Assembly (NCBI GenBank): GCA_002245135.1
Contig: NGBS01000083.1
Location: 1 to 22,484 of the forward strand
Source of the DNA: Proteromonas lacertae
Lineage: Eukaryota; Sar; Bigyra; Opalinata; Proteromonadidae
Direction of reading: 5' to 3'
DNA length: 22,484 nt
Each line of letters starts with the position of its first letter. Within the stretch, counting starts at the first letter, position 1. Shown here in pieces: positions 1 through 22,484 of the stretch. Both the position numbers and the translations under genes were made by a program. A model generated the notes under the pieces. It was not told where the DNA came from, did no database searches, and saw only the letters and a list, made by a program, of their open reading frames with translations.

Positions 1-2658
1 TGTTGGATTTAGGTAAATTAACAATTGATATTCCTACAGGAACTTTGAATTTGTTAGAAAATAATTACTATTCTTATTCTATGTTTATATCAAAATATTG
101 TGATGAAGGTATTAATAGAATTATTTATAGTATTCACGAGTTTAATGTCCCAATGCCATTGTACGATCCTACACTTACTACATTATATGATTGCAAAATA
201 AATCCAACAAATCAGTGGATATCTACAAAAAGAATTTAAAATATCAAAGAAAATCATTGAATTTGTATATATATTAGATTTAACAAATATTAATCAAGTT
301 GATTCATCTTTTCATATATTATCATCTATAACAATATCTACAAGAGAATATAACAGCAAACAAAATAATTATTATATTCAAATGACTAGTAAATCATACA
401 CATCCATTGAGGAATTAGTAGAAATATTAAATTCCTTAAATCAATTGATTATAATGGTAAGTTCAAAACAAGCACTTCAATATTCTACTAAGATAGCAAC
501 AGAGTCTTAATATTCTTTATTAATGATATGTCATCATGTCAAGAAATTACTTCGAATTCTATTCATATTGCGATGTTGGAAGATCATTATTCTATTCCTT
601 CTTTAGCTTATGGTTCTTCGATTGGTATTGAGAATTATTACTTGATATTTACTGAAGCAAATGAATTGTATATTATTTGTGTTTTTTTTTAATACTTTAT
701 TATAGTTCTAAATCAATATTGGATCATTTTGTTTATGAAGGAAAATCTTTCAATTTTACACAGATTTCATATGCCAATTTTACACCATCATGTAATGATG
801 AATATGATATAAAAAAGTTTAGAAATTTCATTAATGCAGTTATTAATTCACAACAGAAATGTGCATGTATATATATATTATTATTATTTTAAAATAGTTT
901 TATTCTTTATTCAAAGTGATTGTTTCAATAAACTATACATCATATTAACAAGTTACCCAAATGCACAAGAATATATTTCAATATTCTTATACTTTGAACA
1001 GTACAATATATTAGAGAATTATCGTTATACAAATTTCAAAATATATATTATTGGTGATTATATATCAGGTTTAATAACAGGTAGTAATTTCGAAGATGTG
1101 ATAATATCCAATTCTAATAATTATCTAAGTGCAAATATTTATACATTCCACGCTTATATTTCAATTCCGTTGATAATGAATGGATTTGAATTAGCTCGAA
1201 ATTATGCTGGTGGTGTAAATGCAATAACATCCAAAATATTAAGATATAGTCTGTATAATAGTCCAAATACATTCTCATTTGGTACTTATTCTATTAATAA
1301 TACAAATACACTGTCTTTTGTATTATATATTGCTCAAGTTTCAAACTTTTTCTCATTGAATGCTGAGAGTGAAATGACACCTCAATTGTTAATGCATAAT
1401 ATGTTATCTTATAATAGAGTTACTGAGATTAAATATTACACAGATTCATTACGAATTGCTTGCATAGTTTTAGATGTAATTGATATGATAATTATTGTTG
1501 CATTATGTGCAGGAATCTTTGTGAATTATAAATCTGTTTTGTTTAGTAAAAGTGGTTTGGAGTTTGATATGATAATTTTAGTTGGTTCATTTGTATTGAT
1601 TTTATATAATACAATTTCATTTGGAAAATCTGTTTATGAGATTTTGAATTGTGTTGTTAAATATCCAATTGTGATGATATTAAATACTTTTTACATCGCT
1701 ATTTATGGTAGTAAAATACTTAAAGGTTATCATTATTATTTGAATTTCACCAACAAATTAGTATATATATATATTATTATTATTATTATTATTATTTATA
1801 TTATATTAGAATGTAATTACAACAAAAAATATATTCTTTGCAATGGGAATATTTGCAATTCCGCAAATACTATTATCAGTTTTAAATATTATTATAAGTG
1901 TATCAGAATCAACAGAAGAGTTTAGTCCATCAGATTCTGATATTTTGCAGGAGATTTATACTATAAAGTGTAGTCATGAAGATATATTTGTGTATATATA
2001 ATTATATTAATTGTATCTATTTATTTCTAAATAGTGTTTTGCAATTAATTTTACATGATTTAATAGTAATATTTTTGATATTAATCTCAATCAAAATTCT
2101 CAAAGTCCCAAGATTATTAAACGAACAAAAGAGAATATTAGCCTATTTGATTATATATATAGTATATTTCGCTATTTTACCAACACTATCTTACTTTGGA
2201 GGTGATGCTGATTTGAACTTAATCGTTTGGGAGTTAGGAATGAATGTAATTATTGTTATTGGACCATTATTGTTATTCATTCCAAAGTTTATTACAATTT
2301 ATTTTGACAAAGATTTTGATGCTTATACTGGTACTCCATCTTCCTCATCTTCAATATTGACATATTCAAAATCAAAAGGGTCAAAGAAGAAACAAACAAC
2401 ATCCAAAGTTTATCCAATCGAAGGAAGAACCAAAACACAACAAACAAAAACTCATTATACACAATTGCACACAAAAACAAGTGGTGAAAATACTACAACA
2501 AATACTCGATTAACTCAAACTAGGACAAATCATAGACATAAGAGAAATCCATCGAATATGGTAGTTACATATATTGAAAAAGTGAGAATAGCACAAGATA
2601 CAACACAACAACCATCCACTCTCTTAGAATCATTGAGTAATCAGAAGAATCCAAATTT

Positions 2659-2698
<40 letters not shown>

Positions 2699-3049
2699 TA
2701 CCAAAGTGAAAGTGTTATTGTAAATGCTCCACCAATTTCAAAGAAGAATAGTACTTATGCAATAAAACAACCTCTAGTAAACAACAATGCAATTAGACAT
2801 AAAAGTTCTATTGAAGAATCACTTGAAAAGAGTGATAAGGTGGTGAATATGAATGGAGAAAGTAGTATGAATAACCAAGGAATGGTGAAATTAGGTGGAT
2901 CTACCTCTGCTGGTGTAGCAAATAAACTGAATATGAATAATAATAATACTTCTAATACTGGTGAAGATTCTAATACTTTAGCTTCTCAATTACCAAGGAA
3001 TAGGACTGATACATTTTTAGATGCATTCATACCTGATATAGATAGTTAA
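1..3049 (+). CDS. class C (GABA-B-like) GPCR with bacterial-type periplasmic-binding ectodomains, 5'-truncated
   Basis: The start lies outside the window. Seven exons join in frame if introns are placed at 161-215, 461-492, 668-705, 867-897, 1761-1809 and 1992-2034, giving about 932 visible residues. The last four introns are typical GTAT...AG; the first two have weaker donors (GTAC, GTTC) and are less sure. The ectodomain resembles urea/amide ABC-transporter binding proteins: a C-terminal lobe end (IDIPTGTLN) at 24-50, then what looks like a second complete lobe pair from about 259 to 1380 (YILDLT start, IPSLAYGSS, ARNYAGGVNAI). Seven hydrophobic segments follow. KILKVPRLLNEQKRILAY between TM5 and TM6 and LLFIPKF in TM7 are class C hallmarks. 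The cytoplasmic tail is Ser/Thr/Asn-rich with an Asn run (AAT repeat, about 2661-2698). By family, it would be a plasma-membrane receptor sensing small solutes. The ligand cannot be inferred. Confidence 0.75.
2661..2698 (+). repeat. AAT trinucleotide run encoding poly-Asn
   Basis: About a dozen consecutive AAT codons lie in the cytoplasmic tail of the class C receptor. Such asparagine homopolymers are common in very AT-rich protist and anaerobic-fungus genomes, and they are often length-variable. Confidence 0.9.
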
Positions 3050-6820: not shown

Positions 6821-7404
6821 AATTTCAAATTTTAATTTTTGATCATGATCTGAGTTTATCTCAAAAACTAAAAAAATTAAAAATCTCATCAAATATATCT
6901 TATTATCAATTATAAACAATTTAAAATAAATATTTATTAACATATTATTGACTCATTCAAAATAATTACCTAGAAAACAATAAGCATTGTAGCTATTTGA
7001 TAAATCAATCATTTCATATCCGCATTCTTTGGTAAAATCATATTCAGTCCATTTGAAGAAGAATGACTTCATTTCTTGATATTTCAATTCAATTCTATTA
7101 TTTAAAATTAACATAGAAATACACTAAAACATCTAAATTACTGCTCAATTTTTTTAATGATTCACTTTCTTTAAATTCATTCGATTTTCATTTCATTTTG
7201 CTGCTTTTATTTCACTTGATTCTTTATCAAGAATAAAAATATATGTACATATAATTTTTGAAATTACAAAATAGATATTTCAATAAATTTCATAATAATA
7301 TTAAGCTATGTTTAAATTTTGATTGTTTTTTTTAAGCTTGATATAGTTTGTATTTAATTACTAAACACACATCTTTGATAATTATAGAAATCATTTCTTT
7401 AGTT
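6821..7404. promoter_or_regulatory. divergent intergenic region between EME1 and the Crinkler-like gene
   Basis: This 584-nt stretch contains the small minus-strand coding segment at 6953-7183 and is otherwise AT-rich. The promoter of the Crinkler-like gene should lie at about 7200-7404. A T-run precedes the region of the ATG at 7405. No further motif seen. Confidence 0.4.
6953..7183 (-). CDS. small unidentified spliced coding segment upstream of EME1
   Basis: On the minus strand, 7183-7123 and 7094-6953 join across a clean 28-nt GTAT...ATAG intron (7122-7095). The segment reads SLKKLSSNLDVLVIELKYQE and SFFFKWTEYDFTKECGYEMI and ends at a TGA (6955-6953). The composition is clearly protein-like, but no in-frame ATG is visible upstream; an earlier exon near 7250-7190 (frame reading ESSEIKAAK) or a frame break is possible. 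An alternative splice from 6968 to a TTTTTTTAG acceptor near 6868 would extend it to a TGA at 6818-6820, 6 nt before the EME1 ATG, so it might be a 5' part of the EME1 transcript. No family recognised. Confidence 0.35.
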
Positions 7405-10400
7405 ATGGAATCATCAGATTTCTTAACTTATAGTGATGTTAATAAAATTAAACTACATGAAGCGGAAGTAATCAGAGGCAAGGCTTTCTGTTATTGCTAT
7501 AATCCTGTTATTTTAATTAGAGATTGCTTCATTCGTATTTACTGTGAAATGAAGAAAATAATAATAGAGAATAAGGGATCTAAATATCAAAAATGCTTTT
7601 TAGTGTATGGCAATAACCAAATAGGTAAGACAACATTCAGCTGTTTTTTAGCATTTTGTTTTAACAAAGATAAAGATTTCAGGGAATATAATATTGTGTT
7701 TTTCTGTGATCCTGTGAAAGATAAACAAACATATTATTTCCGATCAGCTTATGGTGAAATGTATTACAGAATAACAGATCTTCCCAATACAAAGAGAAAA
7801 ACAATAATAATTAGTGACAATAAGCCCATTAACGAAGATGACTACAGTAGTGTTGAGATAGTGATTATGATATCTTCACCAGATGCAAAGAAGTACAAAG
7901 TAATGAGTAATAAAAGAGCTCCAGTGCAATATTATATACCATCTCTCACAGAAGAAGAAATTCAATTCAGCATAAGAATAGGAAATAAGGTGAGTGAAAA
8001 TATAATATACAACTTTAAAAATGTTAGTGAAATTGATGTAAATAATCAGCATTTACCATCATATATACCACCATCATATAATCAAGAATATTATATATAT
8101 GATACAGATAGAATAGATGTAATTCCAGAAAGAATAAAATTCAAATCAGAAGAAATAGAAAAAGAAATAATAATTAGATATTTCAACTCTCCAAAGAAAT
8201 TTGTAGAGTTGTATGATATATTTGATGAAAATGAAAATGGATTTTTATTTGAAAGAATGTGTCATATCATCTTTTCTAAATCAAAAGTTGATAAATTATC
8301 TAATAATAATGGCAAATTATATATGTCAAAGAAAATTTATTATCATGATGATATGAGAGAATTTGTTAAATATCTTAATTCTAAGAGAAAGTATTATATT
8401 AAAGAAGATTATAGAAATGAAAATGTTAATACATTATATGTTGATTTTAGTACAATTAAAGATTTCCCAGCAATTGATGGCTGTATTATTAATAAATTCA
8501 ATATTACAGCTGTCAAAATGACAGTTTCAAATTATCATCCTACTTTAGATACAATAATTGTATTTCTGAATGTATTTATATAAAATATTGCATTTGATTA
8601 GATGATATACAGCTATCATAAAGATATGATGATAGAATATATATTAAATCATCCAACTATTAATCCAACTGTTACTAATCTACTTGCTAGTACAGAATCT
8701 TCACTTTATGATCTTGGTTATATACCAATTAATTTAAAGAGAAATATAATATCTGAAATGGATCAACGTAAAAGAATCCTATATGAAAGCTATGTATATT
8801 ATAATATATTATTTCTATTATTGTTTATAGTTCTTATTCAATGAACTTAGTTGTAGAAAAAACGTAGATTCTAGTTTAATTAAAAACTATAATGTTGAGA
8901 GACAGACTGAATTCTTGAGTATCATGGATGGCAATATGAAAAAGATAAACAAATTAGAGTTTGAATTACTTCCTAAGACGAAGAAAATATTGAAGTGTAT
9001 TAAAAATAATCAAAAACTTACAAAACCTGATTATGTAATTTTATTTGAAGAACGATTAGATGCATTAGAAACACAAGTAAGTTTTTTCGCAACACAATTG
9101 GAAGAATTAAAAGTAAAAATAAGTGCATATGATAGAAAATTGAAAGTATTAAAGAAAAAAATAGAACAATCAAAAGATGATAAATCAGAAAATATCTCCA
9201 AAAAGCGAAAAAGGACAAATACAAAAAAAGATATTGAGATAATTGAAGGATATAGAATAAAAATCAAATTATTAATTTTTATGAATCTAGCAGATAAGAT
9301 TTATTTTCAGTTAGACGAATCAAAAGAATCAATACAAAAGTGTGTATATGAATTATCAATAGTCAAAACAAAATTAATTATAAAAAGAATCGACGAATTA
9401 AAGCATAATGTACAAATAATAAAAGATGGCATATCAAAACAAATAAGTAACGTAGATATTATATTTTCTGACCATTTGCCATTATTAGCTACATCCGAAT
9501 ATTTAATTTTCATACATATATTACAAAATGAATTAATAGCTTCTGAAAAAGAGATTAAAGAAATTCATAATCGATTAAAAGATTTATTCAATGAAAATCA
9601 ACCCAATGAACCAACTCCTGAATTAGATTATTTAGATTCGTTGTTAGAAAATGGATTATCATATATATCAGAAAGGTTTATCAAATTTTGTGATGATATA
9701 ACAGAATTACAAAGTAATGCTTCAGAATTAAAAGTATTATGTAATTTACAAGAGACATTGAAGAGTAATATATATATAATGAATAAAGTCTTCCAATCAT
9801 TTTTACAATGGGATCGTTATGCATTGGAAAATGATTTTCAAACACAATTAACATATTTCAGAACTTTCTTACAAAATTCATTTTTACAAGGTGCAACAAT
9901 AACAGAAATATTAGAAAATGAAGAAAATAATATGGAAGAGGAGAATACTTATACTATAGAAGAAGCAATTCAAGACTCTATAGATTTATATAATGAAATT
10001 GTTTTTTTACAACAACTATTTCAATTTATTAATATATATGATCTTGAAGAAGCAAATGAGTTAGTGAAAAGTGAAATAAATTCAAAGTTGTTACATGATC
10101 TGGATGACTATTTAATCGATGTTATATATAATGACTTAGATGATAATAAAAAAATAGAAATGAAACAAAGAATCATTGATGTATTAAAAATGTATTATTA
10201 TAATTATTATTATAGGCAATTGGCAAGGAAATTCAACCAATTTATGGTAGTACTGATAATAAATTCAAAGATAAATTGAAAAATGAATTGGATATATGTA
10301 ATCCATTATTTAAAATAGTATTTGTTACATATAAAATTGATAATGTTCAGAGTAAACTAATAAAAGGTGATTTGAAATTAGGAATGTATAGCAATGATTT

Positions 10401-13400
10401 TAAAATTGAAATGATAAAAGAAATGAAAAAAACTTATAAGTGGGTAATTAAATCTCTCTCAGCAAATGATGAAAATGACGAAAATCCAACAAAAAAACGA
10501 AAAATAGAATATTATGATGATAATAATACTAATAATAAAAATATAATATCTGAAAATATCATCATATCAATAAAATCAAAAAGAATTAGATTTTCTGTTG
10601 TAAAAATATCTAAAAAAGAATTGTTTGATAGTTCAGGATGTAAAATTCCTACTATGAAACGCTATGCTGCAGGTAAGACCTTGAGATTTTCACCAAAAGA
10701 ATATTCAAATATAATTATCAATAAACCGATCAAAAAGGAAAATAAACCAGAAACAGATATAAAAGAGTTGATTAAAGAATTTAACGATAGTATTGCTACT
10801 CAAGATAATACCATTGATAGTTTAGAAAAAACTTGTTCTAGATGTAATGATTTAATTCTACAATTCACTAATCGTGGCAAAATGGAAAAGTATAAACTAA
10901 GTCAAGATATTAAAAATGATATTGAAATCATGTTTAACAGAATAAATGAAAGTGTAGTACTCAATAAAAAAAATAAAGAAGCAAAGCAATTGAAAGATTT
11001 CATTAAATTAACTTTTCCTGTTGATAATAGAAGTCTAAATGTGTATATTGAAAAGTTGTTATCTGCATTTAATTCAATAAAAGAAATTATACCAAATGTA
11101 AATAATTATTGTTTAGCTTGTTCAAGTATATTTATATCAATATATTATTCTAATAATAGAAACAAATGCAATATGTCAAATATTTGAAAAACCAGTAATT
11201 ATAAATGATGATAATACAATAAGTATTGGATGTTATGTTTACCAATATCCTGAAAAGAAAGTGTATATCCGAAGTGTTTATAAAGATATATGGAATGAAT
11301 TACAATATTATATTTTATTTTTCAAAATAAAAAATGATAAAAGTAAAGATGTAAATAAGATTAATATTATTATTAAGGTTATAAATGAATTAATTGAAAA
11401 AGATAATAACAAGAATGACAAAAGAAATTTTCATATGTTTAGAAAATGTATTGATGAAGTAAGCAATTATAATGAAAAAAATATGATTCTAGAAGATTTA
11501 AACAATAGATTTTTAGCAAGAAGAATCGAAAAGGATGGAAAGGATTTTAATATAGGTAGATGTTTTAATATTTTATTAAGAGGAAATCCAGGATGTGGTA
11601 AGACCTCCTTTATTATATTTTTGTTGAAGATGATATTTGAATTGAATGAAAGAATTAGTGATGATGAATTACATATTAAGGCATCAATATTTAAAAATTC
11701 AGAAGAACAAACATGTAGTCAATATCGATTAGAAGGTAAACATGTAAAAGAAGTAAATGATGATGAACGTTGTGATATAGCTATATCTGATTCATATGAC
11801 CTTAATAAAACAACTGCAAGCGCTTCAATTATATTATATGTTACTTCACCAGATTATAAGAATTATAAACATTTTTATGATTCAGATATTAATAAGGTCT
11901 ATTATTTTATGGATGTATTTAGTGATAAAGAAATTTTAGATTGGGAAGAAAAATGTTTATCTAGTGAATTGAGAGAATCAATAAACAAGAAAGAAAATCA
12001 ATTCAATAAAAAATATGGAAATGTTCCAAGACATATTTATTATGCTTCAATATATGATGTATGTTATAGAAAAGATTATTGGGATCAGTTATACTCAATG
12101 GGTATTAAAAGAATAATAGGTGGTCTTGGATATATGGAATTTCTAATGAAATATCTATTTCCAAGTGAATCTAAAACTGATAAAATATCCAACAGAAAAG
12201 TTGCATTTGATAGTACCTTATGCCATTATATAGTGAAATATTCTATTCCATATAAAGATAAAGATAAAACAACCAAATGTTATGATAGAATCAACGAAGA
12301 TCAAATGGAATTTATATCTGATGAGGTATATGATTTTATATATTGTAATGTAAAACACAAAGTTGAAGAAGAAGATGTGAAAAAGCTTCAAAATATTTTT
12401 GCAGATATTTATGATAAAAAATATCATCAATTATTTCAATTATTATTTGAAGAACTAGTATTTTACAACTGTTTATATAATACAGATAAGTTGCAGAGAA
12501 GCAAAGGTTGTAGTATATTATTAGAAGAAATAAAAGACGATAAATTTGAAGAGTTTAAAAAATTATTTGATGTAAATATCTATTCTACTAAAATGAAAGG
12601 AGTATATATACTTCATTTAGCAACTCTTGAGAATAGAGAAATGATTTATTTGGTGAACAATTGTTTTATTCATATATTAAATGATGAAAGAAAAGTAGAT
12701 TTTGATGATAAAATAAATGAATGTATATGTGGTTTGCAAGATAAGATGAAATATTCAAAAATGTACTATGTTGTAGTATCCAATAATTGCTCATCTGTTT
12801 CATCATCTTCTGAAACAAAAGTATCAGTTTCCCATTTTAAAGGAGAGGCAAAAATAAATAAAACAAAAATTATATATTGTACATCAAAATTTGGTAATTC
12901 AGTATATGGAAATGCTTTCAATATACAAATTGGAAATGATAAAGAAGTTGAATTTAAAAAGAATAGTAATACACAGACTGCAATACTAACATCAGTATCA
13001 ATACCACCATCACCACCACCACCACAACAACAATTACAATCAATTGATAATGATGGTATTTACTTTGGAACTTCTATTGATAATGTGGGTGATAAATGTG
13101 GTTTAGTGAATGAAGGTAATACTAGTTACTTGAACTCAACATTGCAATGTTTAGCTCATATCGTACCATTACAATATTATTTCAAAAACACATACGAAGA
13201 GATATATTTTGATGAAAATGATGATAATAATACTTGCATGACAAAAGCTATCGCTCTTTTATTAAGAGATTTAGTGAAGCAAGATACTAAAAAGATAGTA
13301 ATATGTCCAAAAAATGTAAAAATAGCAATAGAAAAATGTGATAGAGAATTAAGAGTTGACATACAAAAGGATGCATATGAATTACTACAGTTACTATTAA

Positions 13401-14153
13401 ATAATCTCAATAATGAAGCCAACAAACTATTTTTAGGAGTATTTGATAATAAAATAAAATGTAAAACAAAATTTAAACCAAAAGTACATGATATTTTTTT
13501 GGTTTATCAGTTAAAGTTCCTGATAATGTAAAGGATGGTGTTAAGTTAGAAAATTGTATTAATTCTTGTAAAAAAATAATAGAAACCCCCAAAATATTAA
13601 TAATTCATTTGAACAGATTTGGTAATATGAATAAAGAGATACACACAGTTGTGGATATTTATGATGTATTAGATTTAACAAGTTATGTAAAAAGTATATT
13701 AATATATATTAATATATTATATTTTAAATAGATGGAGAAAAGAAAGTATATGATTTGATAGGAATGTCAAGTTACAGTTTCTCAATGCATCATTACATTG
13801 CTATATGTAAATCAACTCATGATAATAAATGGTTTATATTTGATGATGATGAAGTAATGAATGAATCTGATGTAGAGAATAAGAATGAGAAATATTCTGA
13901 TTTTCTTCCATACATATTATTTTATCAGTTAAGAGAAGAAGGAGAAAACATGATGGATGAAGAAGATGATGAAGATGATGATGAAGAAGATGATGATGAA
14001 GAAGATGATGAAAATGATGATGAAGATGAAGATGATGAAGAAAGTGAAGAAGAATGTGAAGAAGAAGAAGGTGGTGAAGATGACGATGATGCAGATGATG
14101 ATGATGAAGATGAAGATGATGAAGAAGGTCATGATGAGGAGGAAAATTTATAG
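7405..14153 (+). CDS. giant Crinkler/RHS-type protein: NTPase, REase-like module, coiled coil, second NTPase, USP-like domain, acidic tail
   Basis: Six exons (7405-8559, 8602-8793, 8831-10180, 10216-11125, 11160-13693, 13732-14153) with introns of 42, 37, 35, 34 and 38 nt join in frame to about 2187 aa, allowing one base lost in the T7 run at 13494-13500. Residues 69-77 form a P-loop (GNNQIGKTTF), followed by ISSPDAKKY and QYYIPSLTEEEI, as in Crinkler/RHS NTPases. FPAIDGC (353-359) and VKMTVSNYHP (from about 370) match the restriction-endonuclease-like part of that family. Helical coiled coil spans about 450-1200. A second P-loop (GNPGCGKTSF, about 1344) is followed by VTSPDYKNY and GNVPRHI. 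The USP domain starts at CGLVNEGNTSYLNSTLQCL with Ser1858 at the catalytic Cys position; its His box (MHHYIAICK) and FDDDEV are kept. The last 67 residues are mostly Asp/Glu. In known systems such proteins are effector or conflict proteins acting in nuclei; here function is inferred. Confidence 0.75.
13484..13533 (+). other. reading-frame break (T7 run) in the USP domain, or an alternative intron
   Basis: The upstream frame ends at a TAA (13529-13531). The downstream frame resumes at GGT 13501, giving FFGLSVKVPDNVK, which fits the USP fold. One missing T, or -1 slippage on T-TTT-TTG, explains the shift. An intron 13484-13533 (GTACAT...AAAG, 50 nt) would also restore frame but would delete that conserved-looking piece. 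Confidence 0.6.
13950..14150 (+). repeat. GAT/GAA triplet repeat encoding a poly-acidic tail
   Basis: About 200 nt of almost only GAT, GAA and GAG codons form the C-terminus of the Crinkler-like protein. The stretch is purine-biased on the + strand, and the antisense reading (poly-Ile/Phe) is a shadow. Confidence 0.85.
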
Positions 14154-14156
14154 CTA

Positions 14157-14407
14157 TATTCTTTTAGTATTGAAATTAACCAATCCGACGAAAAGAATAT
14201 ACTGGATATTCGAGAAATGAAATTAAATGACATATCAGTGATATTATCATAACAGTATGGTTTGAAATATATTTCTATATTTGAAAGATATGAAATTATT
14301 TTTACAAATATTTTCAACAACTGGAATAATCAAAATACATTACAGAAGAAGAAAAGAAAGACTTATCGCAACAATTTTATAATATCATTGTATATTTAAC
14401 ATTTTAA
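14157..14407 (+). pseudogene. decayed coding remnant after the Crinkler-like gene
   Basis: After the TAG at 14151-14153 the same frame stays protein-like: IEINQSDEKNILDIREMKLN, a TAA, then QYGLKYISIFERYEIIFTNI. A one-base shift then gives YITEEEKKDLSQQFYNIIVY and a final TAA. I found no splice that joins it to the gene. It may be the former C-terminus of the upstream gene or part of another Crinkler-type copy. No family recognised. Confidence 0.4.
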
Positions 14408-14427
14408 GTGTTGTGTAAGTAAATTAG

Positions 14428-14469
14428 AAGCACTCTAAAATTTAATTGTATTATAATCTAATAGTGCTT
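14428..14469. repeat. inverted repeat AAGCACT / AGTGCTT
   Basis: Seven-base perfect arms (14428-14434 and 14463-14469) flank a 28-nt AT-rich loop just before the compositional switch into the element. It may be a transcription end or part of an element boundary; unproven. Confidence 0.4.
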
Positions 14470-14489
14470 ATATAATATAAATGCATGAA

Positions 14490-14620
14490 ATCCTCTTTTA
14501 TAGAGGATCCTCTTCTAAAAGAGGATTTTTAGATCCTCTCTGAAAGAGGAAAGAGGATTTTTAGATCCTCTTTAAAAGAGGAAATATAAATTTTATAAAA
14601 TCCTCTTATTAAAAAAGATG
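14490..14620. repeat. cluster of GAGGA/TCCTC direct and inverted repeats at the element's left flank
   Basis: AGAGGATTTTTAGATCCTCT occurs twice (about 14519-14538 and 14552-14571), and TCCTCT-TTTAT-AGAGGA forms a hairpin at 14490-14506. GAGGATCCTC (14503-14512) is a perfect palindrome. More TCCTCT words follow to 14640. Together they can form several alternative hairpins. A terminal-repeat or origin-proximal role for the adjacent polymerase element is inference. Confidence 0.6.
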
Positions 14621-14754
14621 ACAAATGAAAAATCCTCTATGCTAAACATAATATTATTGAAAAAATTTGAAAAGTCTACTGATGAATTATTAAAAATTCT
14701 TCATCCAATATGATACCATCATACTAGAGGATTATAATTTATTATGTGTCTATC

Positions 14755-14835
14755 TGACCAGCCCCCCTGTGGGGGGCCGATGGGGGGGATGCCGGCGGGT
14801 GGAGGACTAGACTATAGTATAGACTAGAATAGACT
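14755..14835. repeat. isolated GC-rich block with G-tracts, then TAGACTA repeats
   Basis: GCCCCCC-TGT-GGGGGGC (14761-14777) is a perfect hairpin. It is followed by a run of seven G, GCCGGCGGG and a short array of TAGAC/TATAG units. It is the only strongly GC-rich patch in an otherwise very AT-rich window and contains no ORF. It may be a dispersed repeat or a structured DNA element. Confidence 0.6.
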
Positions 14836-14882
14836 AAAACAAAAATAAGAATATAGAATCAGTATATATTATTAGAGGAAAT

Positions 14883-17800
14883 CTAATTATTGTATCCATA
14901 AGGAACTGTTTCATAATCATCCTCAAAGTATCTTTTATCATCAAAATATGTAAGTCCTATCTTTTCTTCATAAGCAGTATAGATATGATGATTTCTACTT
15001 CTAATATGATTAATACCAAACTTCTGTTTAGAAACATATCCATCAACCATTTCAGTATAATCATCTCCTGTCATCTTACTTGCTATAGCTGTTATTAATC
15101 CTTTACATCTATTGGAGGATTTAAGTGTACCATCATTAACACATTCCTTTTCATAATAATAACATTTGGCTTTCAATCCTCTAAACTTAGTGATGACATA
15201 GAATTTCTTACCATCCTGTTCCTCAAACTTGAGTTTATTTAATGTTCCTGGTTTACATGATAATGAATCCCATTTGTAGTAATTACTGAAAGGAGGCATA
15301 TTCAGATTACTTCCATCTATATATTTTTGAAGATGATTGAAATTCCAATATATATCTTTAGTCTTTACAGAAAAGAGGAGACTGTCAGTATCTGTCATTA
15401 AGAGTCTAACATCTTCTGGTGAATTGTAATGTAATACTCCATCATACCAATACTGTTGCATTAATAATTTAGAAAGAGCAAGGATTGTCATACCTATCTG
15501 AATAGGTTTATTAATTTTGAACATCTTTTTATGATAATGTACTAATCTCAAATCTCCGTGAATAGTATCTATCTTATCAAACCAAGGATCTCTAATAGCT
15601 TTTCTTGCTTGATTTTCTGACACTACTAATTTGATACTTCTCCTCTTATCAACTCTTTCTAAAGTTTTTCCATAAAGTGAATTAAGTAATTTCTTCATAA
15701 TATTAGCAGTAGATGTTTGATGCATTTCCTTCGCATGAACTCTCATATCCTTTAATTGATCAATATGTTTAGACATATGTTTACTTTCCAAGAAAGTTAG
15801 TACTTTATATACTTTTGTTACTCTATATCCATGATCAACTGCAAATTTGAGATTCTGATAATGGATGACATAATGTTCCTTAGGCAATAAATCAGTAACT
15901 AACTTTTCAGAGGAAACATATTTATGAACATCAGGATTTTTCTGATCATCCTCTTTTTGAGAGTATAATACTTCTAATTTTTCTTTTTGTATATTTGACA
16001 ATTCATCATAGCTAATTTTCCTTCTTGAAGGTAGAATAGGATATTCTCTTAAATACTCCTTATAATAGGAAATAGGTTCAATATCCACTTCTAACATATA
16101 TCCTGTAGTTTCAAAGGAATCATTCTTATCATAGAATTTAGTAGAATCTAATATCTCATGAAGTTTAGGACAACCAGGATCTTCATAACAATAAAGATGA
16201 TAATTCCTTATAGGAAGTTTACATAAATACATTACTGAAGGATATAAGGAATTCATATCCTGATAAACAATAAACTTTGAAGGTTTCTTTGGATCATAAT
16301 CCTTCATATAGAAATTATTAGCATCTTCTTTCCTCTTTCCTATATAGGATAATCCTCCATATAATCCATTAAGGATGAAATCATATATTTCAGGTTCATG
16401 AACTTTCTTTCAAGAACAAATCCAAGGATAAACTAGGAATTGAAACATACCAACAAGGATCAATATGAAAGTGATTAAAGATGTTTTGTCTAAAATCCTC
16501 AAATACTGAACATAGGATATAAACATCAATACTTAAATAGAAATTACAATATTCTCCTATAGAAGCTTTTCCTTCAAACAAAATGTTATTCACTTCCATT
16601 GCAAAGTTATATTCATCTTCTGTTATTGTTGAATTGGATAAACTTGAATAGAAATCCTGAATCTTCAAATCCTTAAATTGATTATCATATTTTTCCAAAC
16701 AATCAACATATTCATAAGGAAAGAAGTTTTTCTGAAGAAGATACTTATCAATGATTTCCTCATCTAACTCAGGAAAGTTATCATAAATGACTTTAAACTT
16801 TTCCTTTTTACAATTTAACTCTAAAGCTGTTATCTTTAAATCCTCTGTTAAACTAGATAATTTTTCAGAAAGGAATTGGTATGAATCAATGAACATTAAT
16901 CTATCAAAGAATATAGCTTTATAGTTTTCATCAGTAGAAGGAAGGATATCCAAATTTAAACCAGTCTGTTTAGCAATTTCTGCAAGTTCTCTAATGATGA
17001 AATGTTGGTCATATCTCATAGCGTTATGACCAATTATAGGAATCTTGTATCCTTTTACTTTAATTGATAAGTTCTCTTTGGAATGAATTGAAGCAATGTA
17101 CTTTCCAGTGAAATGATTATGATGGAGGACTTTTGGATCAAAAGGAGTAAAAGGTTTATTACAAAAATCACAAACAGTTTTACTCATATGAATAGCTAAA
17201 TCTTCCTCATTTTGATCCCAATCTTTAGGATATAAGTTTATTATATTATATAAGTGTTTTACATCTTTATATACTGTCATGATATCCTCCATAAATTCTT
17301 TTTCTAAATTTTCATCTTCGGATATCTTCACATTCATAATAGTTGTAGATTTAATTTGAGGAATTTTACTTTCAATATATAAACAATATGATTTTAACTT
17401 ATGTTCATTTTTGAAGGATCTTAATGTTTTTGTCTTTTCCTGAGAATTATCAATAGGGACAATGTATGCTTCTGTATCGTAATAAATAACAACAGGAATC
17501 ATATCCTCTCTGTTAGAATGTTCAAATTTCATAAAAGCTTCCTCACTATCCTTATCAGGAAATATCCTTATTACATTATCAGGATTTTGACAATTTACTG
17601 TTTTGTGATTTACAAATGATTTTGCATTATAAGTATAAAAGGGACAATAAGGACAAACCAAAGGACTTGTTTTATTCTTAAATATTACACCAAAAACTAA
17701 GCTAAATACTTGATTTAAGGATTTAATTGCACAATAATGTCCTGTAATTACTTCATCTGTAGTATCATTATTATTAGGAAGGAATAATAAATTAATAACA

Positions 17801-18824
17801 GGATTACCAACATTCTTATCAATTATGCTATATCTTAATGGAAGGATTTTAGGTTTGTCCTTTTCCTCTTCATCAATTGCAAATGCATTTATGTTTAAAT
17901 CATAAGTTTGCTCTACTTTATCTATATCAGGATTATTAACAGGAGCTACTGGTATTGTAATAAAATCGCTACTAGGTTGTATTTGAGGTAAATGTTTTTT
18001 TTTAAACAGGAATTAATTGCTCTCCAAAAACAATCCATATTATCATTATCCTTATTTTCACAAGGATCTAAACAATACTTATTATTAAATATATCAGGTA
18101 TATGATAATTTCCTCCTGCTCCTGCCATAATTTGGTATTGATTAATATGAGTTTCCATTAAATCCATATATTGGAATATTAAACCAGATTCTGGAGGAGA
18201 AAAGTCATCCTCATTAATAGAATGAAATAAGGAACGCATCTTTGCTGCTACTGATGCAGGACTATCATACTCATTTATTAATATATTTCTTGTATTATGA
18301 AATAAGGATACTTCCTCACCTGATTCATCTTCCGAAGAAGTATAAACATACCAAAATACAAAGTATACTTTAATATTTTTCATTTCATGTGCTATTTCAC
18401 TTATTCTTAAAGCAACATCTGTGTTATCAACAATGAAATTATAATAATCTTCTGGAGTAAGAAGATGAATATCCTTTAAATTAGTAACGTACTTCCTTGT
18501 TACTCCTTCAGAGGATTGTCCTTCTAATTCATACCTTTTTATTCTTTCCTCTAAATTTCCTCTTGGAGGATGAATTCTATCATCATCCATATCATCATCT
18601 CCTCCACCAAAATACATTCCATAATCAGGATTTATAATATGTACTCGAGGATTATTATTTAAATTCCTCATATAGGAGGATTCACTTATTTTCCTTCTTT
18701 TACTAGTTGCATTAATGAAATATTGGGAAGTACTATCCTCATTTTCTAACATCTTTTCTAATAAATGAGTTTTTGCATTTAAAGCATATTTCTTCTGCTT
18801 ATCAGTATTCTTCCTTTTATTCAT
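14883..18824 (-). CDS. protein-primed family B DNA polymerase of Polinton/Maverick type, frame-disrupted
   Basis: About 1313 codons from ATG 18824 to TAG 14883. The N-terminal domain has PPESGLIFQYMDLM, NYHIPDIFN and DNMDCFWRAINSCL, typical of virus/Polinton pPolB, then GHYCAIKSLNQVF and a C2HC-like knuckle (VCPYCPF...H). The exonuclease motifs are present: YYDTEAY (about 17463), GHNAMRYDQHF (about 17017) and YLSID (about 16520). An HNH-like Cys/His insertion (CDFCNKPF...HHNHFTGKY) lies between Exo I and Exo II. Polymerase motifs A (DMNSLYPSVM), B (KLLNSLYGK), C (MTDTDS) and the GLKAKCYYY region are intact. Two breaks interrupt it: a -1 shift in a run of nine A (17995-18003) and a +1 shift near 16396-16405. 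The family replicates linear elements using a terminal protein primer. All catalytic residues remain, so decay is recent or apparent. Confidence 0.88.
16385..16410 (-). other. +1 frame break between the exonuclease and polymerase halves
   Basis: The exonuclease frame ends LDLFLKESS then TGA (stop at 16396). Shifting +1 one codon earlier continues as VHEPEIYDFILNGLYGGLSY into motif A. No GT-AG intron fits. One inserted base or a two-base loss is the simplest explanation. Confidence 0.65.
17995..18003 (-). other. A9 homopolymer frame break in the DNA polymerase (candidate -1 slip site)
   Basis: On the coding strand TTA-AAA-AAA-AAC leads to a premature stop 18 codons later. Re-reading one A (-1) resumes at CAT-TTA-CCT and stays open for over 1.5 kb. 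The heptamer A-AAA-AAA is in the right register for -1 slippage, but one undercalled or lost A gives the same picture. Confidence 0.65.
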
Positions 18825-19032
18825 GATTTTATACTTATGAAAATTCAAAACTAAAAAGAAAACAAAAAATGAATATACTTTAAAATAATTGGTCAATTAA
18901 TATAATTGGTCAAATACAAACGTATACTAAATTTTGATTGGATAATTAAAAATCTACTTAAAAATCGTTACTTTTTTATTTGCAATTTTCTTGCTATTTT
19001 TCTATTATTAAAAACTTAACTTCTAAAAAATC
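18825..19032. promoter_or_regulatory. bidirectional promoter region between the polymerase and zinc-protein genes
   Basis: This 208-nt region separates two divergent genes. ATTGG (CCAAT on the other strand) occurs at about 18888, 18905 and 18937; the first two sit inside a direct repeat AATTGGTCAA (18887-18896, 18904-18913). On the + side, CGTTACTTTTTT (18966-18977) and TTTTCTTGCTATTTTT (18986-19001) match elements before other genes of the element. Confidence 0.55.
18986..19001 (+). promoter_or_regulatory. shared element promoter motif, copy 1
   Basis: TTTTCTTGCTATTTTT, 47 nt before ATG 19033, with CGTTAC 20 nt further upstream. It is one of four copies of TTTTCYTGYYRTTTTT found 37-47 nt before + strand genes of this element. 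Confidence 0.5.
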
Positions 19033-19914
19033 ATGAGTTCTGGTAAAAAATACTTTACTTCTAAAAAGTATGTAGAAGAGGAGGCTGAGGAGGATAACTC
19101 TACTATAACTAGTGATGAAGATGATTTAGAAAATTGTGAAACTGAACCAGTATCACAAAGTGAATATGAAAAGCCTTATATTAAGGATTATGAGAGATGG
19201 TGTAAGGAAAACAATGTTGATGAAATGGAAAGTAATCCTGAACCAAAGTATGAAGCTGAATTAGTGAGGAAAATCATGGGTGATAAGCAAATGTTAGAAA
19301 TGGGAAATATTCCTAAGTTAGAATCTGCAAGAGGATTAGTGAGTGATTACCTTCCTCCTCATTTAAATAGATGGTTAACTTTCATTGGACATGTATCTGA
19401 GATGAAATTAGAAAAACCAAAAGAGGATCAGGAAGGATATTATTCTGTGAAGTTTACTAATGTTCAAGTAGCTAGGTTTGCAGGAAAGGATTGTGATGCT
19501 AGTGAATGGATAAAGTTAAAATCCTCTTGGTTATATGATGAAGAGGAAGAAGATGATAAAGCCATTCCTATTCCTAAAAAGAAGAAGGAATCAGCTCCAG
19601 TACCAGAAGGATCACAAAAGTGTTCTACATGTAACAAAATCCTTCCTTTAGAGAACTTTGCAACAAAGCCAAACGGTGACAAAAACAAAAGTTGTGAAAG
19701 ATGCCGCTTAAAAAGAAGGAGTATTATGATAAACAAAGACAACAAAAGAAACAGAAATGTTAAAGAGGAAGATTCAAGTAGTGGAAAAGTAAAAGTTGAA
19801 TTATGTCCTAAACCAGCTCCAAAGAAAAGAAAGATTGATGTTGTCATTCCTTCTGCAATGGATGAGGAACCTGATGATGATGAGGAAATAGATAGTGAGG
19901 AAATGGAAATATAA
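19033..19914 (+). CDS. acidic protein with a C2-C2 zinc-binding motif
   Basis: A single-exon 293-aa ORF starting at MSSGKKYFTSKKY. The N-terminal 50 residues are acidic. A central globular-looking part (about 90-165) includes SDYLPPHLNRWLTFIGHVSE and YYSVKFTNVQVARF. Residues about 196-227 hold CSTCNKILPLENF...SCERCR, a CxxC-x20-CxxC knuckle resembling zinc ribbons near HNH/GIY-type or transcription-related proteins. Basic stretches (RCRLKRR, APKKRKIDV, the latter like a nuclear localisation signal) follow, with a final acidic tail. It lies divergent to the polymerase and has the shared promoter motif. A nuclear DNA-binding role (replication accessory, regulator or terminal-protein partner) is possible but not shown. 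I do not recognise the family. Confidence 0.8.
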   Translation: MSSGKKYFTSKKYVEEEAEEDNSTITSDEDDLENCETEPVSQSEYEKPYIKDYERWCKENNVDEMESNPEPKYEAELVRKIMGDKQMLEMGNIPKLESARGLVSDYLPPHLNRWLTFIGHVSEMKLEKPKEDQEGYYSVKFTNVQVARFAGKDCDASEWIKLKSSWLYDEEEEDDKAIPIPKKKKESAPVPEGSQKCSTCNKILPLENFATKPNGDKNKSCERCRLKRRSIMINKDNKRNRNVKEEDSSSGKVKVELCPKPAPKKRKIDVVIPSAMDEEPDDDEEIDSEEMEI

Positions 19915-19940
19915 ATTCTAATATTAATCTTTATTTTCAT

Positions 19941-19956
19941 ATTTCTTGTTGTTTTT
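19941..19956 (+). promoter_or_regulatory. shared element promoter motif, copy 2
   Basis: ATTTCTTGTTGTTTTT, 44 nt before ATG 19985, followed by a (TA)n run (about 19960-19978). Nearly identical to the copy before the gene at 20456. Confidence 0.5.
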
Positions 19957-19984
19957 AGAATATATATATATATATATATTCAAA

Positions 19985-20389
19985 ATGCCTAGATATAGAA
20001 TTAATACTTTTTCATTAAAAGCAAATAATGTTGGACCTGTAGTTTGCAAATTATACAGGTATGCGGTAATAGATAGAGGAAATACATATCAGATTATATG
20101 GTATATCAAATTTAATCCTCAAGTATTACAGAATATTATTATGGGTGGAGATAGATGGATTCATGTAGTACCATATCGTACTAGCGATGTTAATGATGAA
20201 CCAGAATTATGGTTTATTGGAACCGGAATGAGATCTATGCAACTTGATTTACCTGAATTAATCTTTAATCCATCGCCTAATCCTCCAATTTTGCTTCGTG
20301 GAAATCTTAACGTAAGACAAAGAAGATATTTACAGCTTCATTTATTATATGATCCTTTAGATGAAGATGATGATGATGATGATGAATAA
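19985..20389 (+). CDS. unidentified 134-aa protein with acidic tail
   Basis: The ORF MPRYRINTFSLKANNVGPVV... ends in DEDDDDDDE. The start at 19985 is chosen because it is the first ATG in the frame and lies at the expected distance from the promoter motif. Predicted content is mostly beta-like (VVCKLYRYAVIDRG, YQIIWYIKF, RWIHVVPYR, ELWFIGTGMR) with a Pro-rich turn (NPSPNPPILL) and an RQRRY patch. No known domain or membrane segment is recognised. It sits in a co-oriented series of element genes. A small structural or nucleic-acid-binding protein would fit, but this is inference only. Confidence 0.7.
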   Translation: MPRYRINTFSLKANNVGPVVCKLYRYAVIDRGNTYQIIWYIKFNPQVLQNIIMGGDRWIHVVPYRTSDVNDEPELWFIGTGMRSMQLDLPELIFNPSPNPPILLRGNLNVRQRRYLQLHLLYDPLDEDDDDDDE

Positions 20390-20413
20390 AACAATAATTA
20401 ATTTCATTTTTAA

Positions 20414-20429
20414 TTTTCTTGTTGTTTTT
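20414..20429 (+). promoter_or_regulatory. shared element promoter motif, copy 3
   Basis: TTTTCTTGTTGTTTTT, 42 nt before ATG 20456. The match is exact over the TTTCTTGTTGTTTTT core with copy 2. Confidence 0.5.
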
Positions 20430-20455
20430 GTATATTATACTCTCATAATTACAAA

Positions 20456-20693
20456 ATGTTATCAAAAAATAATGAGACTGTCTTAGAGACAAATGTTGAG
20501 GAAATCAAGGAAAGTATAGGAATCCTCTTAGTATATGTCATCCTTTGGGTTGTAACAGGAAGTCATCAAAATTGTATATTATACTTATAAAGCATATTGT
20601 CCTCCTAAAGTCATTGAAGTTGTTGAGGAAATTCAACATAATTTGGGAAGCACAAATAAAAAAGAGGATGATGAGGAAGAGGATTATTATTGA
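20456..20693 (+). CDS. small spliced acidic protein of the element
   Basis: Exon 1 (20456-20530) joins exon 2 (20559-20693) across a clean 28-nt intron (GTATAT...ACAG) to give 69 aa: helical ETNVEEIKESIGILLEVIKI, AYCPPKVIEVVEEIQHN and an acidic end. Read unspliced, the frame stops after 44 codons and is less protein-like. After the TGA, a +1 frame runs on to 20787 (IIIEENEELSSINKTYRTSS, then GRLHYPPSKYSD), so the original protein may have been about 100 aa. No family recognised. Confidence 0.6.
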
Positions 20694-20787
20694 AGAAAAT
20701 GAGGAATTATCCTCCATAAACAAGACATATAGAACAAGCAGTGGAAGATTACACTATCCTCCGTCAAAATATTCTGATACAATTTAG

Positions 20788-21004
20788 AAAATGTTATAGA
20801 GTAATTTTAAAATCCTAATTAATGATTTTTTTCTAAGTTCCTTTTTTGGGTTTCGAAAATCCTCTTTTTTCGTAAAAAAAATAACGGTTTTTGTAACGAA
20901 GGAAAATCCTCCAATCATAATCGACCGTTACTTTTTAAGTAAATTTGCCGTTACTTTTCATTCTGAGTTTTCCTGCCATTTTTATGGTTAGAATTTTCAA
21001 ATAT
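20788..21004. promoter_or_regulatory. regulatory spacer with repeated CGTTAC/GTAACG words
   Basis: CCGTTACTTTTTA (20925-20937) and CCGTTACTTTTC (20948-20959) are tandem copies. TAACGG (20882-20887) and GTAACG (20893-20898) are inverted copies. A T-rich run with TCCTC words precedes them. The last CGTTAC lies 19 nt before TTTTCCTGCCATTTTT, the same arrangement as before the zinc-protein gene. Confidence 0.5.
20968..20983 (+). promoter_or_regulatory. shared element promoter motif, copy 4
   Basis: TTTTCCTGCCATTTTT, 37 nt before ATG 21005, with CGTTAC 19 nt upstream. Confidence 0.5.
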
Positions 21005-21263
21005 ATGGAAATTAATACTACTGAGATATTGAAATTAACAGTTGCTACAGCAGAAGCTACTGGTAATATTTTGTTATTTATATAATGTAGGACTTTACTA
21101 AGTTCTTGGGGAAGTCAACAATTTACCCCGTGAAAAATGGAGCAAGGAGGATGATGCTGTTGTGAGAGGATTATACTCTCAACTTGGTGCATTTATTAAT
21201 CAACTAAATGACAATCCTGCTGGAGTATATTTTGTATGTATTATACTTGCAATAGACTTGGAA

Positions 21264-21372
21264 ACATTATGAAAAGGAGGAAAAGGAGGAAAAGGAGGAA
21301 ATGAGGAAAAGGAGGAAATGGAGGAAAAGGAGGAAAAGGAGGAATGGAGGAAAAGGAGGAAATGGAGGAAAG
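21264..21372 (+). repeat. GGAGGAAAA minisatellite
   Basis: About eleven units of 8-9 nt (AAAAGGAGG, AAATGGAGG and an 8-nt variant) in direct array, purine-only on + apart from scattered T. The 8-nt units shift the reading frame of the Glu/Lys-rich gene. Confidence 0.85.
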
Positions 21373-21579
21373 TGAAAAAGAGGAAAGTAAGAAAAGTCCT
21401 GAGGTATATTTGATTATTTATATATACATAGAATGGATGCTTGAAAAAGAGGAATTCCTCAAAGAACTTAAAGAAATCAGGGATGAAGATCTTGAAGAAA
21501 GTGATAAAGAGGATATAGTATCACTAGATGAAAAGGAAAGAGAGAAACAGTTAAACCACCTTAAAAAACTTAAACATGC

Positions 21580-21586
21580 AAAAAAA
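21580..21586 (+). other. A7 homopolymer frame break
   Basis: GCA-AAA-AAA-TGT-ATT-TAA ends the upstream frame. Re-reading one A gives ATG-TAT-TTA-AAC-GTC and a 219-codon open frame. It has the same form as the A9 break in the polymerase. Confidence 0.55.
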
Positions 21587-22420
21587 TGTATTTAAACGTC
21601 AAAAAGAATGGCAAAAAAAAACATGCATCTATTATTGAACCTGATGATGATTTTGAAGAACCACCACCTCCAGAGCTTCCTCCAAAACCAAAATCAGATC
21701 CTATTAAAGAGGTGTTACAAAAAACATCAATACTGAATAAGTTTAATGTCAAAAAGATATCTAAATCCTCTCCTGAAACAATTCCTCCAAAGGATCTAAG
21801 CAAATTGAAGAAAGTCAAAGAAGTAGTAAAAGAAATTGAAAAGGAGGATATTCCTCAGATTATAGTATCAGAAAGTGATACAGATTCAGATGATGAAAAA
21901 GTAATTGTAGCAAAGAAGAGGCAAAGACCTCAGTCAGTAAAAAAGGAGGATGAAAAGAAAAAGCAGAGAAAAGTAGCTGAAATTCCTCCACCAGATCCTT
22001 CAAAGAGGTACACAGATTCAGAACTGTTCGAGATGCTGTTGAACAAGAAGTGCAGTATTAATCAATGGTACGACAAAGGATCTTTAACAAAGTACATCAG
22101 CATCCTGTCCATCAACACCTGTAAGTACCTGAAGACAGAATTAATGAAATACAAGAAAAATCAAATGAACAAGGCTTACAAGAAATCAGCTCGAATGGAT
22201 GAATTACTCAAAGAGATGCATAAGTATAAAGCAGTACAATTCTAAAGATATCCAGAACTTCCCTGACAAAGCATCTTACAAGAAACAGTTTATAGATTCA
22301 AAAAAAGCCAAAGATGATTATGAAGATGAAATTAATGCAATACAGCAGGATGTTAGCAAAGTTAAAGAAGGATTGAAGCCTATTGAAGACAGAATCAAGA
22401 CATTGGAAGGTGCACATTAA

Positions 22421-22484
22421 TTAGATGATAATGATAATTCCTCTTTATGAGATGACTTTTGTTTTTCCTCTTTTGATCTAAAAT
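22421..22484. other. right edge, no gene seen
   Basis: AT-rich sequence after the last stop, with TCCTC words. The element appears to continue beyond the window. Confidence 0.5.

What the first reader, a model, noticed from the sequence alone, without database searches (positions are those of the whole stretch)
7405..14153. One spliced gene fuses two Crinkler/RHS-type NTPases with a ubiquitin-protease domain
Five short introns restore a single frame across what would otherwise look like five or six separate ORFs. The exon lengths plus one base for the T-run sum to an exact multiple of three. The order (P-loop NTPase, REase-like FPAIDG...VKMTVSNYHP module, about 750 residues of coiled coil, second P-loop NTPase, USP, acidic tail) is unusual. 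Crinkler-type proteins normally carry one NTPase and one effector domain.
Basis: partly seen in the sequence, partly recalled or inferred. Interest (0 to 1): 0.8.

Follow-up and report, generated by a model that had tools for sequence, protein, structure and literature searches.

The report
Twin-ATPase gene with captured ubiquitin-protease domain
The window holds one long spliced gene, from a large multicopy family in an unnamed AT-rich eukaryote, that joins two related ATPase domains and a nuclease-like stretch to a ubiquitin-protease domain apparently taken, intron included, from one of the organism's own genes; in this copy the protease's cutting residue is changed.

Summary
Window 7405-14153 is one six-exon gene: P-loop NTPase A with a REase-like motif, a helical linker, a second NTPase B, a UCH/USP domain and an acidic tail. 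All five introns keep GT..AG borders in every alignable one of nine paralogues; intron 1 more likely starts at 8572 than 8560. Paralogue C855 carries A, B and UCH in one uninterrupted 1359-aa frame, so the fusion needs no splicing assumption. In the same genome 51 of 56 scored B matches have A upstream on the same strand and 18 of 56 have UCH. A and B are homologous (hhalign 96.7%; shuffles at most 2.0%). All ten RHSP-profile candidates in the genome belong to this family, none over the cut-off, and the window's own exon 1 is not among them. The UCH domain is closest to host USP C158 and shares its intron's place and phase. Not noticed before: the UCH nucleophile reads Ser here (Cys in 9 of 16 read), so this copy probably cannot cut ubiquitin. 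No Crinkler header was found. A CR/RHS-like twin NTPase with a captured USP; function inferred.

The parts
7405..8571 (+). Exon 1: NTPase A (P-loop GNNQIGKT at 7609-7632) and REase-like motif (FPAIDG...KMTVSNYHP, 8464-8541)
   Evidence: Open frame; 12-row alignment with 32 invariant columns; dN/dS 0.27-0.57 against 10 copies
8572..8601 (+).
   Evidence: GT..AG in 9 of 9 copies; C363 keeps only the second GT, and distant A-type frames keep coding across the first 12 nt
8602..8793 (+). Exon 2 (64 codons)
   Evidence: Open frame; found in 10 copies
8794..8830 (+). Intron 2 (37 nt; 31-37 in paralogues)
   Evidence: GT..AG in 9 of 9 copies
8831..10180 (+). Exon 3: linker, low in proline
   Evidence: 65 matches in own genome, the window's own included; 46 inside an A..B interval, 38 ending at residue 449 or 450; heptad signal not above shuffles
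10181..10215 (+). Intron 3 (35 nt; 28-33 in paralogues)
   Evidence: GT..AG in all 6 alignable of 9 copies
10216..11125 (+). Exon 4: linker with heptad periodicity
   Evidence: Open frame; heptad test, 1 of 200 shuffles reach it
11126..11159 (+). Intron 4 (34 nt; 34-37 in paralogues)
   Evidence: GT..AG in 9 of 9 copies
11160..13693 (+). Exon 5: NTPase B (P-loop GNPGCGKT at 11582-11605) and most of UCH; frame broken at the T-run near 13489-13500 in this copy
13097..13925 (+). UCH/USP domain, spanning intron 5; the nucleophile position (13124-13126) reads Ser, in GNTSYLNS; His and Asp boxes present
   Evidence: PF00443 on three pieces, genome scan, reading of the translations
13694..13731 (+). 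Intron 5 (38 nt; 33-39 in paralogues), same position and phase as an intron of host USP C158
   Evidence: GT..AG in all 5 alignable of 9 copies; 3' site 17 nt before the YDLIG codon here and in C158
13732..14153 (+). Exon 6: UCH C-terminal piece, acidic tail (from about 13938) and stop
   Evidence: D+E is 50% of residues in this exon

Best explanation
This is one member of a large dispersed gene family (at least 56 B matches) coding for a twin P-loop NTPase of the Crinkler/RHS kind: NTPase A with a REase-like module, a long helical linker, and NTPase B. In part of the family the protein ends in a USP domain derived from the organism's own C158-type USP gene, copied as genomic DNA because the intron came along. 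Shown by sequence: fusion, order, A-B homology, USP kinship, shared intron, and Ser at the USP nucleophile in this copy. Inferred mechanism: the two NTPases act as an NTP-driven switch that controls a nucleic-acid-directed REase-like domain inside the organism's own cells. Copies with Cys-type UCH could strip ubiquitin from a target or from themselves; the Ser-type lineage to which the window belongs would only hold ubiquitinated partners. With no Crinkler header found, an intracellular role in genome conflict (against mobile elements or rival selfish genes) is more likely than secretion into a host. The window copy may itself be decaying.
For: One 1359-aa frame with both P-loops and UCH in C855 and a 1227-aa frame with both P-loops in C1180. 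51 of 56 B matches have A upstream on the same strand, 0.3-5.5 kb. Linker matches lie inside 27 of 50 A..B intervals examined. Introns conserved. A-B hhalign 96.7%, E 4e-10, against at most 2.0% in 60 shuffles, 0.4% reversed, 0.6% for another ATPase fragment. RHSP profile: 10 candidates in the genome, nine in A-type exons (eight in my A list, C1097 recognised) and one in a B-like protein. CR UCH rows plus C158 against four other host USPs and a retroelement UCH: support 96/98; shared intron at the same site and phase, absent in the 3 other host USPs read there. dN/dS below 1 in every piece with synonymous change. REase-plus-deubiquitinase fusions are known in CifB (PMC11342252, passages read).
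Against: No transcript data. The window's own exon 1 has no NTPase profile hit; RHSP and nSTAND3 matches in relatives are below curated cut-offs, and the genome's best nSTAND3 matches lie outside this family (22 of 225 candidates scored). The REase assignment is by motif only, and the nearly invariant Q371 is K in the window. The A-B match falls to 23.5% (E 9e-4) when the P-loop is left out. The CR UCH rows form one group with only 75/83 support, several rows are long, and the five host USPs were picked from the upper part's list, most of the other UCH matches not being fetched. Some dN/dS values are near 1 (up to 0.88 in the linker, 0.80 in B and in one UCH comparison). The frame break and the Ser could mean a decaying copy. 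No homologue of A was found elsewhere and only two of B. Function, target and subcellular place are untested.
Confidence: 0.55

Rival explanations
1. Two neighbouring genes: an A gene that stops at the TAA just after 8580, and a B-UCH gene that starts at an ATG such as 8602.
For: A frame read through intron 1 ends at that stop; exon 2 begins with ATG here and in C363; 49 of 99 A matches have no B match with them, though only 56 of 414 B candidates were scored.
Against: C855 and C1180 carry A and B in one frame; distant A-type frames continue coding through the intron-1 site; order and strand are kept in 51 of 56 cases.
Confidence: 0.08
2. The gene is the cargo or the engine of a transposable element, as proposed for the origin of CR proteins.
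For: High copy number; tandem array of about 6777 bp period in C363; fragments and broken copies; a DNA-polymerase-B element starts 317 bp downstream in the window; an integrase frame (PF00665, over cut-off) lies about 1.4 kb past the C117 copy.
Against: Several introns; against 20 fetched pieces the window's similarity mostly stops near the gene's ends, but I ran no search for terminal repeats or target duplications; some copies sit among ordinary genes (SART-1 and SPX beside C1111, GNT-I beside C1155); the polymerase element has its own recurrent edge near 14470, beyond the gene (31 of 75 matches begin at query base 69-71), and C261 has a counterpart of 14400-14482 without the rest of the element.
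Confidence: 0.2
3. A secreted effector that acts on another organism, like oomycete Crinklers.
For: Expanded family with variable C-terminal modules, like CR proteins (PMC5289972, passages read).
Against: No Crinkler header by Pfam, and only 68 residues before the P-loop; none in the genome (though its control rang nowhere). No signal-peptide program was run and the lifestyle of the organism is unknown.
Confidence: 0.15
4. The window copy is a pseudogene and its UCH domain has no function.
For: Frame break at the T-run; Ser at the nucleophile; C117's linker is also split among frames.
Against: Ser is shared by 5 of 16 UCH domains read, down to 54% (C391) and 42% (C731) identity in that piece, so it is old; the last UCH piece shows dN/dS 0.25-0.41 against four copies, although the first piece ranges from 0.37 to 0.80; a T-run is where assembly errors are common.
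Confidence: 0.35

Closest known systems
Crinkler-RHS-type (CR) proteins, NTPase + REase class (Zhang et al. 2016, seen only through passages of PMC5289972; RHSP PF07999)
   Same: P-loop NTPase followed by a REase-like motif; expanded, modular family; weak RHSP matches confined to this family
   Different: Two NTPases; no Ubl header found; UCH C-terminus, whereas the peptidases named in the passage read are trypsin, zincin-like and Ulp1-like
CifB (Wolbachia), REase plus deubiquitinase fusions (PMC11342252, passages read)
   Same: REase-type module joined to a deubiquitinase-type domain
   Different: CifB has four tandem REase domains and OTU, PL-OTU or Ulp1/SMT4 domains; here one REase-like motif, two NTPases and a USP
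USP family (PF00443), host gene C158
   Same: UCH by profile; His and Asp boxes; same intron position and phase
   Different: Ser in place of Cys in the window; fused to NTPases; the zinc-finger cysteine pairs were not seen, by eye, in the window copy
C1166 protein of the same genome
   Same: B-like NTPase followed by an A-like NTPase
   Different: Reverse order, with SAP domains between

Membership tests
CR (Crinkler-RHS-type) proteins | RHSP-type P-loop NTPase (PF07999) | tested here: inconclusive
   Below cut-off, 20.9 bits or less against 25; window exon 1 itself no match at E 1; but 10 of 10 genome candidates lie in this family
CR (Crinkler-RHS-type) proteins | REase-superfamily domain after the NTPase | tested here: inconclusive
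   Motif D...Q-x-T...H conserved, recognised from memory; no profile or PDB hit
CR (Crinkler-RHS-type) proteins | N-terminal Ubl header (PF20147) | tested here: not met
   No match at E 1 in exon 1; none in the genome (control rang nowhere)
CR (Crinkler-RHS-type) proteins | Variable C-terminal domain on a common core | tested here: met
   UCH match beside 18 of 56 B matches, none beside the other 38
CR (Crinkler-RHS-type) proteins | Secretion or translocation | not tested
   No signal-peptide program on hand; localisation needs an experiment
USP / UCH (PF00443) | Profile match over curated cut-off | tested here: met
   68.0, 24.6 and 35.8 bits against 23.9 on three pieces
USP / UCH (PF00443) | Catalytic Cys | tested here: not met
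   GNTSYLNS in the window; of 16 UCH domains read, Cys in 9, Ser in 5, and in 2 the Cys sits one place off
USP / UCH (PF00443) | Catalytic His and Asp | tested here: met
   HHYIAI...WFIFDDDEV in exon 6, by reading
CifB | Four tandem REase domains | tested here: not met
   One REase-like motif in the pieces, by motif reading; folds were not tested
nSTAND3 (PF20720) | Profile match over curated cut-off | tested here: not met
   Best A-type member 20.9 bits and C1166 18.8 bits against 27.2; the 22 genome matches are not in my A or B lists

The most novel reading that the evidence does not exclude
A eukaryotic genome-conflict family acting inside its own cells, built from duplicated CR/RHS-type NTPases, that captured a host deubiquitinase gene with its intron and then split into a cutting (Cys) branch and a ubiquitin-holding (Ser) branch: a eukaryote-encoded parallel to the REase-deubiquitinase fusions of Wolbachia CifB.
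Probability: 0.3. Interest if true: 0.75.

Novelty: new variant of a known kind. Interest (0 to 1): 0.5.

Why it matters
CR proteins are thought to descend from NTPase-nuclease elements and are known mainly as effectors. A family with a duplicated NTPase core, no header found, and a USP domain whose origin can be traced to one host gene by a shared intron makes the capture of host ubiquitin machinery by such proteins directly testable, and offers natural Cys and Ser versions of the same domain for comparison.

Tried and rejected
Organism: not identified. A search for '1181 contigs/scaffolds' listed two unrelated papers. Anaeramoeba was considered; A. ignava is 80.65% A+T and A. flamelloides almost six times larger (PMC11550330, passages and section 10), which does not fit well. 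A Pelomyxa search listed nothing that I could use. The SSU rRNA scan did not complete (below).

Homologues: exon 1 alone and the 12-row A alignment found nothing in 5.8 billion proteins; the B piece found two metagenome proteins (7993 candidates scored). No confirmed relatives in viral contigs or prokaryote contigs. These collections say little about eukaryotes. PADLOC gave one hit, IetA, E 2.3e-6 (25.2 bits), on residues 569-615 of the C855 frame, around its second P-loop; I read it as generic P-loop likeness. PDB profile of A: none at E 1; of B: best E 0.013. UCH in piece B matches solved USP structures, best E 3e-9.

The idea that the polymerase-B element carries this gene was rejected: its edge recurs near 14470, 317 bp past the stop. 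Pfam hits to RPGR1_C, SlyX, Lipase, DASH, RNA_helicase and the like stayed below cut-off and are taken as chance or generic P-loop signal. Literature: listings for Crinkler with ubiquitin, deubiquitinase or UCH terms, and for RHS with NTPase terms (2 of 2, 1 of 1, 12 of 66 and 8 of 25 papers listed) showed no title or abstract on a CR protein with a USP domain; the NAR 2016 paper itself is not held.

Limits of my counts: one search scored 56 of 414 B candidates and one search scored 105 of 381 A candidates, so family sizes are lower bounds. The lists of 56 B and 99 A places were typed from 85 and 124 matches; the 29 and 25 left out by hand are further pieces on the same contigs. One search used 50 of the 51 A-B pairs (C146:66492, which shares its A match with another B, was dropped). 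Only part of the 134 UCH matches was fetched. 'Stand-alone' is not shown for the distant A-type frames: four A matches without a B have a UCH match downstream.
Full report
What is there. The window is contig C782 (22,484 bases) of a 50.2-Mb assembly in 1181 contigs; introns and gene content show a eukaryote. I kept the pieces apart throughout. Exons: 7405-8571, 8602-8793, 8831-10180, 10216-11125, 11160-13693 and 13732-14153.

Splicing. In nine paralogues every alignable intron begins with GT and ends with AG: 9 of 9 for introns 1, 2 and 4, 6 of 9 alignable for intron 3, 5 of 9 alignable for intron 5. Introns 2-5 change length freely. Thirty-eight of 65 matches to exon 3 (the window's own included) end at its last or last-but-one residue, as a real splice border would give. 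The T-run near 13489-13500 breaks the frame in this copy; C261 and C117, the only two that aligned there, stay open.

One gene. The strongest evidence needs no splicing: C855 (L029:389-4465, - strand) has a single 1359-aa frame with P-loop A, P-loop B and a UCH domain over Pfam's cut-off (42.9 against 23.9 bits), and C1180 has a 1227-aa frame with both P-loops. By reading, these two lack the REase-like stretch and most of the linker. In the genome 51 of the 56 B matches scored have an A match upstream on the same strand (56 of 414 candidates were scored), and linker matches fall inside 27 of 50 such intervals. Forty-nine of the 99 A matches had no B match with them. Every piece with synonymous change shows dN/dS below 1: 0.27-0.57 in exon 1, 0.41-0.80 in B, 0.48-0.88 in the linker, 0.37-0.80 in the first and 0.25-0.41 in the last UCH piece. 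Exon 2 and the UCH pieces had no synonymous change against C261 and C117 and give no ratio there.

The NTPases. Scanned directly, exon 1 of the window has no NTPase family at E 1 and B only below-cut-off matches. Profile alignment of A and B gives 96.7% (E 4e-10) over 147 columns. Sixty column-shuffled controls reach at most 2.0%, the reversed profile 0.4%, and an unrelated ATPase fragment 0.6%; without the P-loop the match falls to 23.5% (E 9e-4) but keeps its register. Pfam's RHSP profile finds ten candidates in the whole genome, none over its cut-off and none in the window itself; nine are A-type exons (eight in my list, C1097 recognised by reading) and the tenth, in C1166, is a B-like protein (hhalign to B 99.4%). 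C1166 also has an A-like NTPase after it, with SAP domains (E 2.9e-16) between: the same pair in reverse order. So the link to RHS proteins is indirect but specific. nSTAND3 is not specific: its best genome matches lie elsewhere. No Crinkler header was found (the control rang nowhere). The REase reading rests on FPAIDG...QMTxSxxHP, conserved in the alignment and recognised from memory.

The UCH domain. Three pieces match PF00443 over its cut-off. The nucleophile position reads Ser (GNTSYLNS). Of 16 UCH domains of the family that I could read, Ser stands in 5 (window, C261, C117 first, C391, C731), Cys in 9 (C991, C776, C976, C1178, C855, C117 second, C216 first, C821 first, C925), and in 2 (C216 second, C821 second) the Cys sits one place off. 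Ser is therefore inherited, not a fresh change of this copy. Among five host USPs fetched from the upper part of the genome's UCH list, C158 is the closest, and a tree puts it with the CR rows at 96/98; the CR rows alone form one side at 75/83, with several long branches. C158 has an intron whose 3' end lies 17 nt before the YDLIG codon, in the same phase, as in the window, C391 and C1178, and one codon nearer in C991. The three other host USPs read at that place have none; the fifth, C1119, was not read there. I infer that a C158-type gene was copied as genomic DNA onto a twin-NTPase gene. An intron-less group (C976, C216, C821, C925, C117 second) is a clade at 100/99.

Surroundings. Left are a WD40 gene and a piece weakly like MUS81 (26.8 bits, cut-off 27.4). 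C117 shares that flank at 99.3% but has about 2.2 kb more before its copy. Right, a DNA-polymerase-B element begins near 14470; 31 of the 75 matches to this stretch begin at that edge, and C261 has a counterpart of 14400-14482 without the rest of the element. An integrase frame lies past the C117 copy, while ordinary genes flank others. The distance of the window copy from C261 falls along the gene (dS 0.135 in exon 1, 0.019 in B, none in UCH), which suggests gene conversion.

Function. Shown: architecture, kinship, selection, a Ser in place of the cysteine. Inferred: NTP-driven control of a nuclease-like domain, with the USP module adding ubiquitin cutting in Cys copies and only binding in Ser copies. 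Fusion of REase-type and deubiquitinase domains has a precedent in CifB (PMC11342252, passages). CR peptidases named in the review passages I read are trypsin, zincin-like and Ulp1-like (PMC5289972); the listings of four searches showed no CR-USP fusion. No structure prediction could be run.

Verdict. A new variant of the CR/RHS kind.

Noticed in passing
window 14470-22484: A DNA-polymerase-B (PF03175) mobile element with a recurrent left edge near 14470; the polymerase frame is split in the window but 1344 aa long in several other copies.
   Followed up: partly
window 7085-7092; L011 2815-5000: Compared with C117, about 2.2 kb is missing between the left flank and the gene; the extra stretch in C117 looks by eye like an XPB/ERCC3 helicase gene (not tested by profile).
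   Followed up: partly
L052 (C1166:50001-52800): B-like and A-like NTPases in reverse order with SAP domains between.
   Followed up: partly
C363; L031: Tandem array of the family with a period of about 6777 bp.
   Followed up: partly
L012 about 2080-2785 (C117): A second UCH domain, with Cys, follows the acidic tail in the C117 copy.
   Followed up: partly
L012:4144-4743 (C117): An integrase frame (PF00665 over cut-off, PF17921 below) about 1.4 kb past the C117 copy of the gene.
   Followed up: no
L046 (C398:20801-25900): A UCH domain lies in a repeated long frame that looks by eye like a retroelement with an RNase H region.
   Followed up: no
window 1-3049: Frames that look by eye like a multi-pass membrane receptor with asparagine runs; no Pfam hit for the two frames scanned.
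   Followed up: no
window 14490-22484: TCCTC/GAGGA words seem unusually frequent across the polymerase element; seen by eye only.
   Followed up: no
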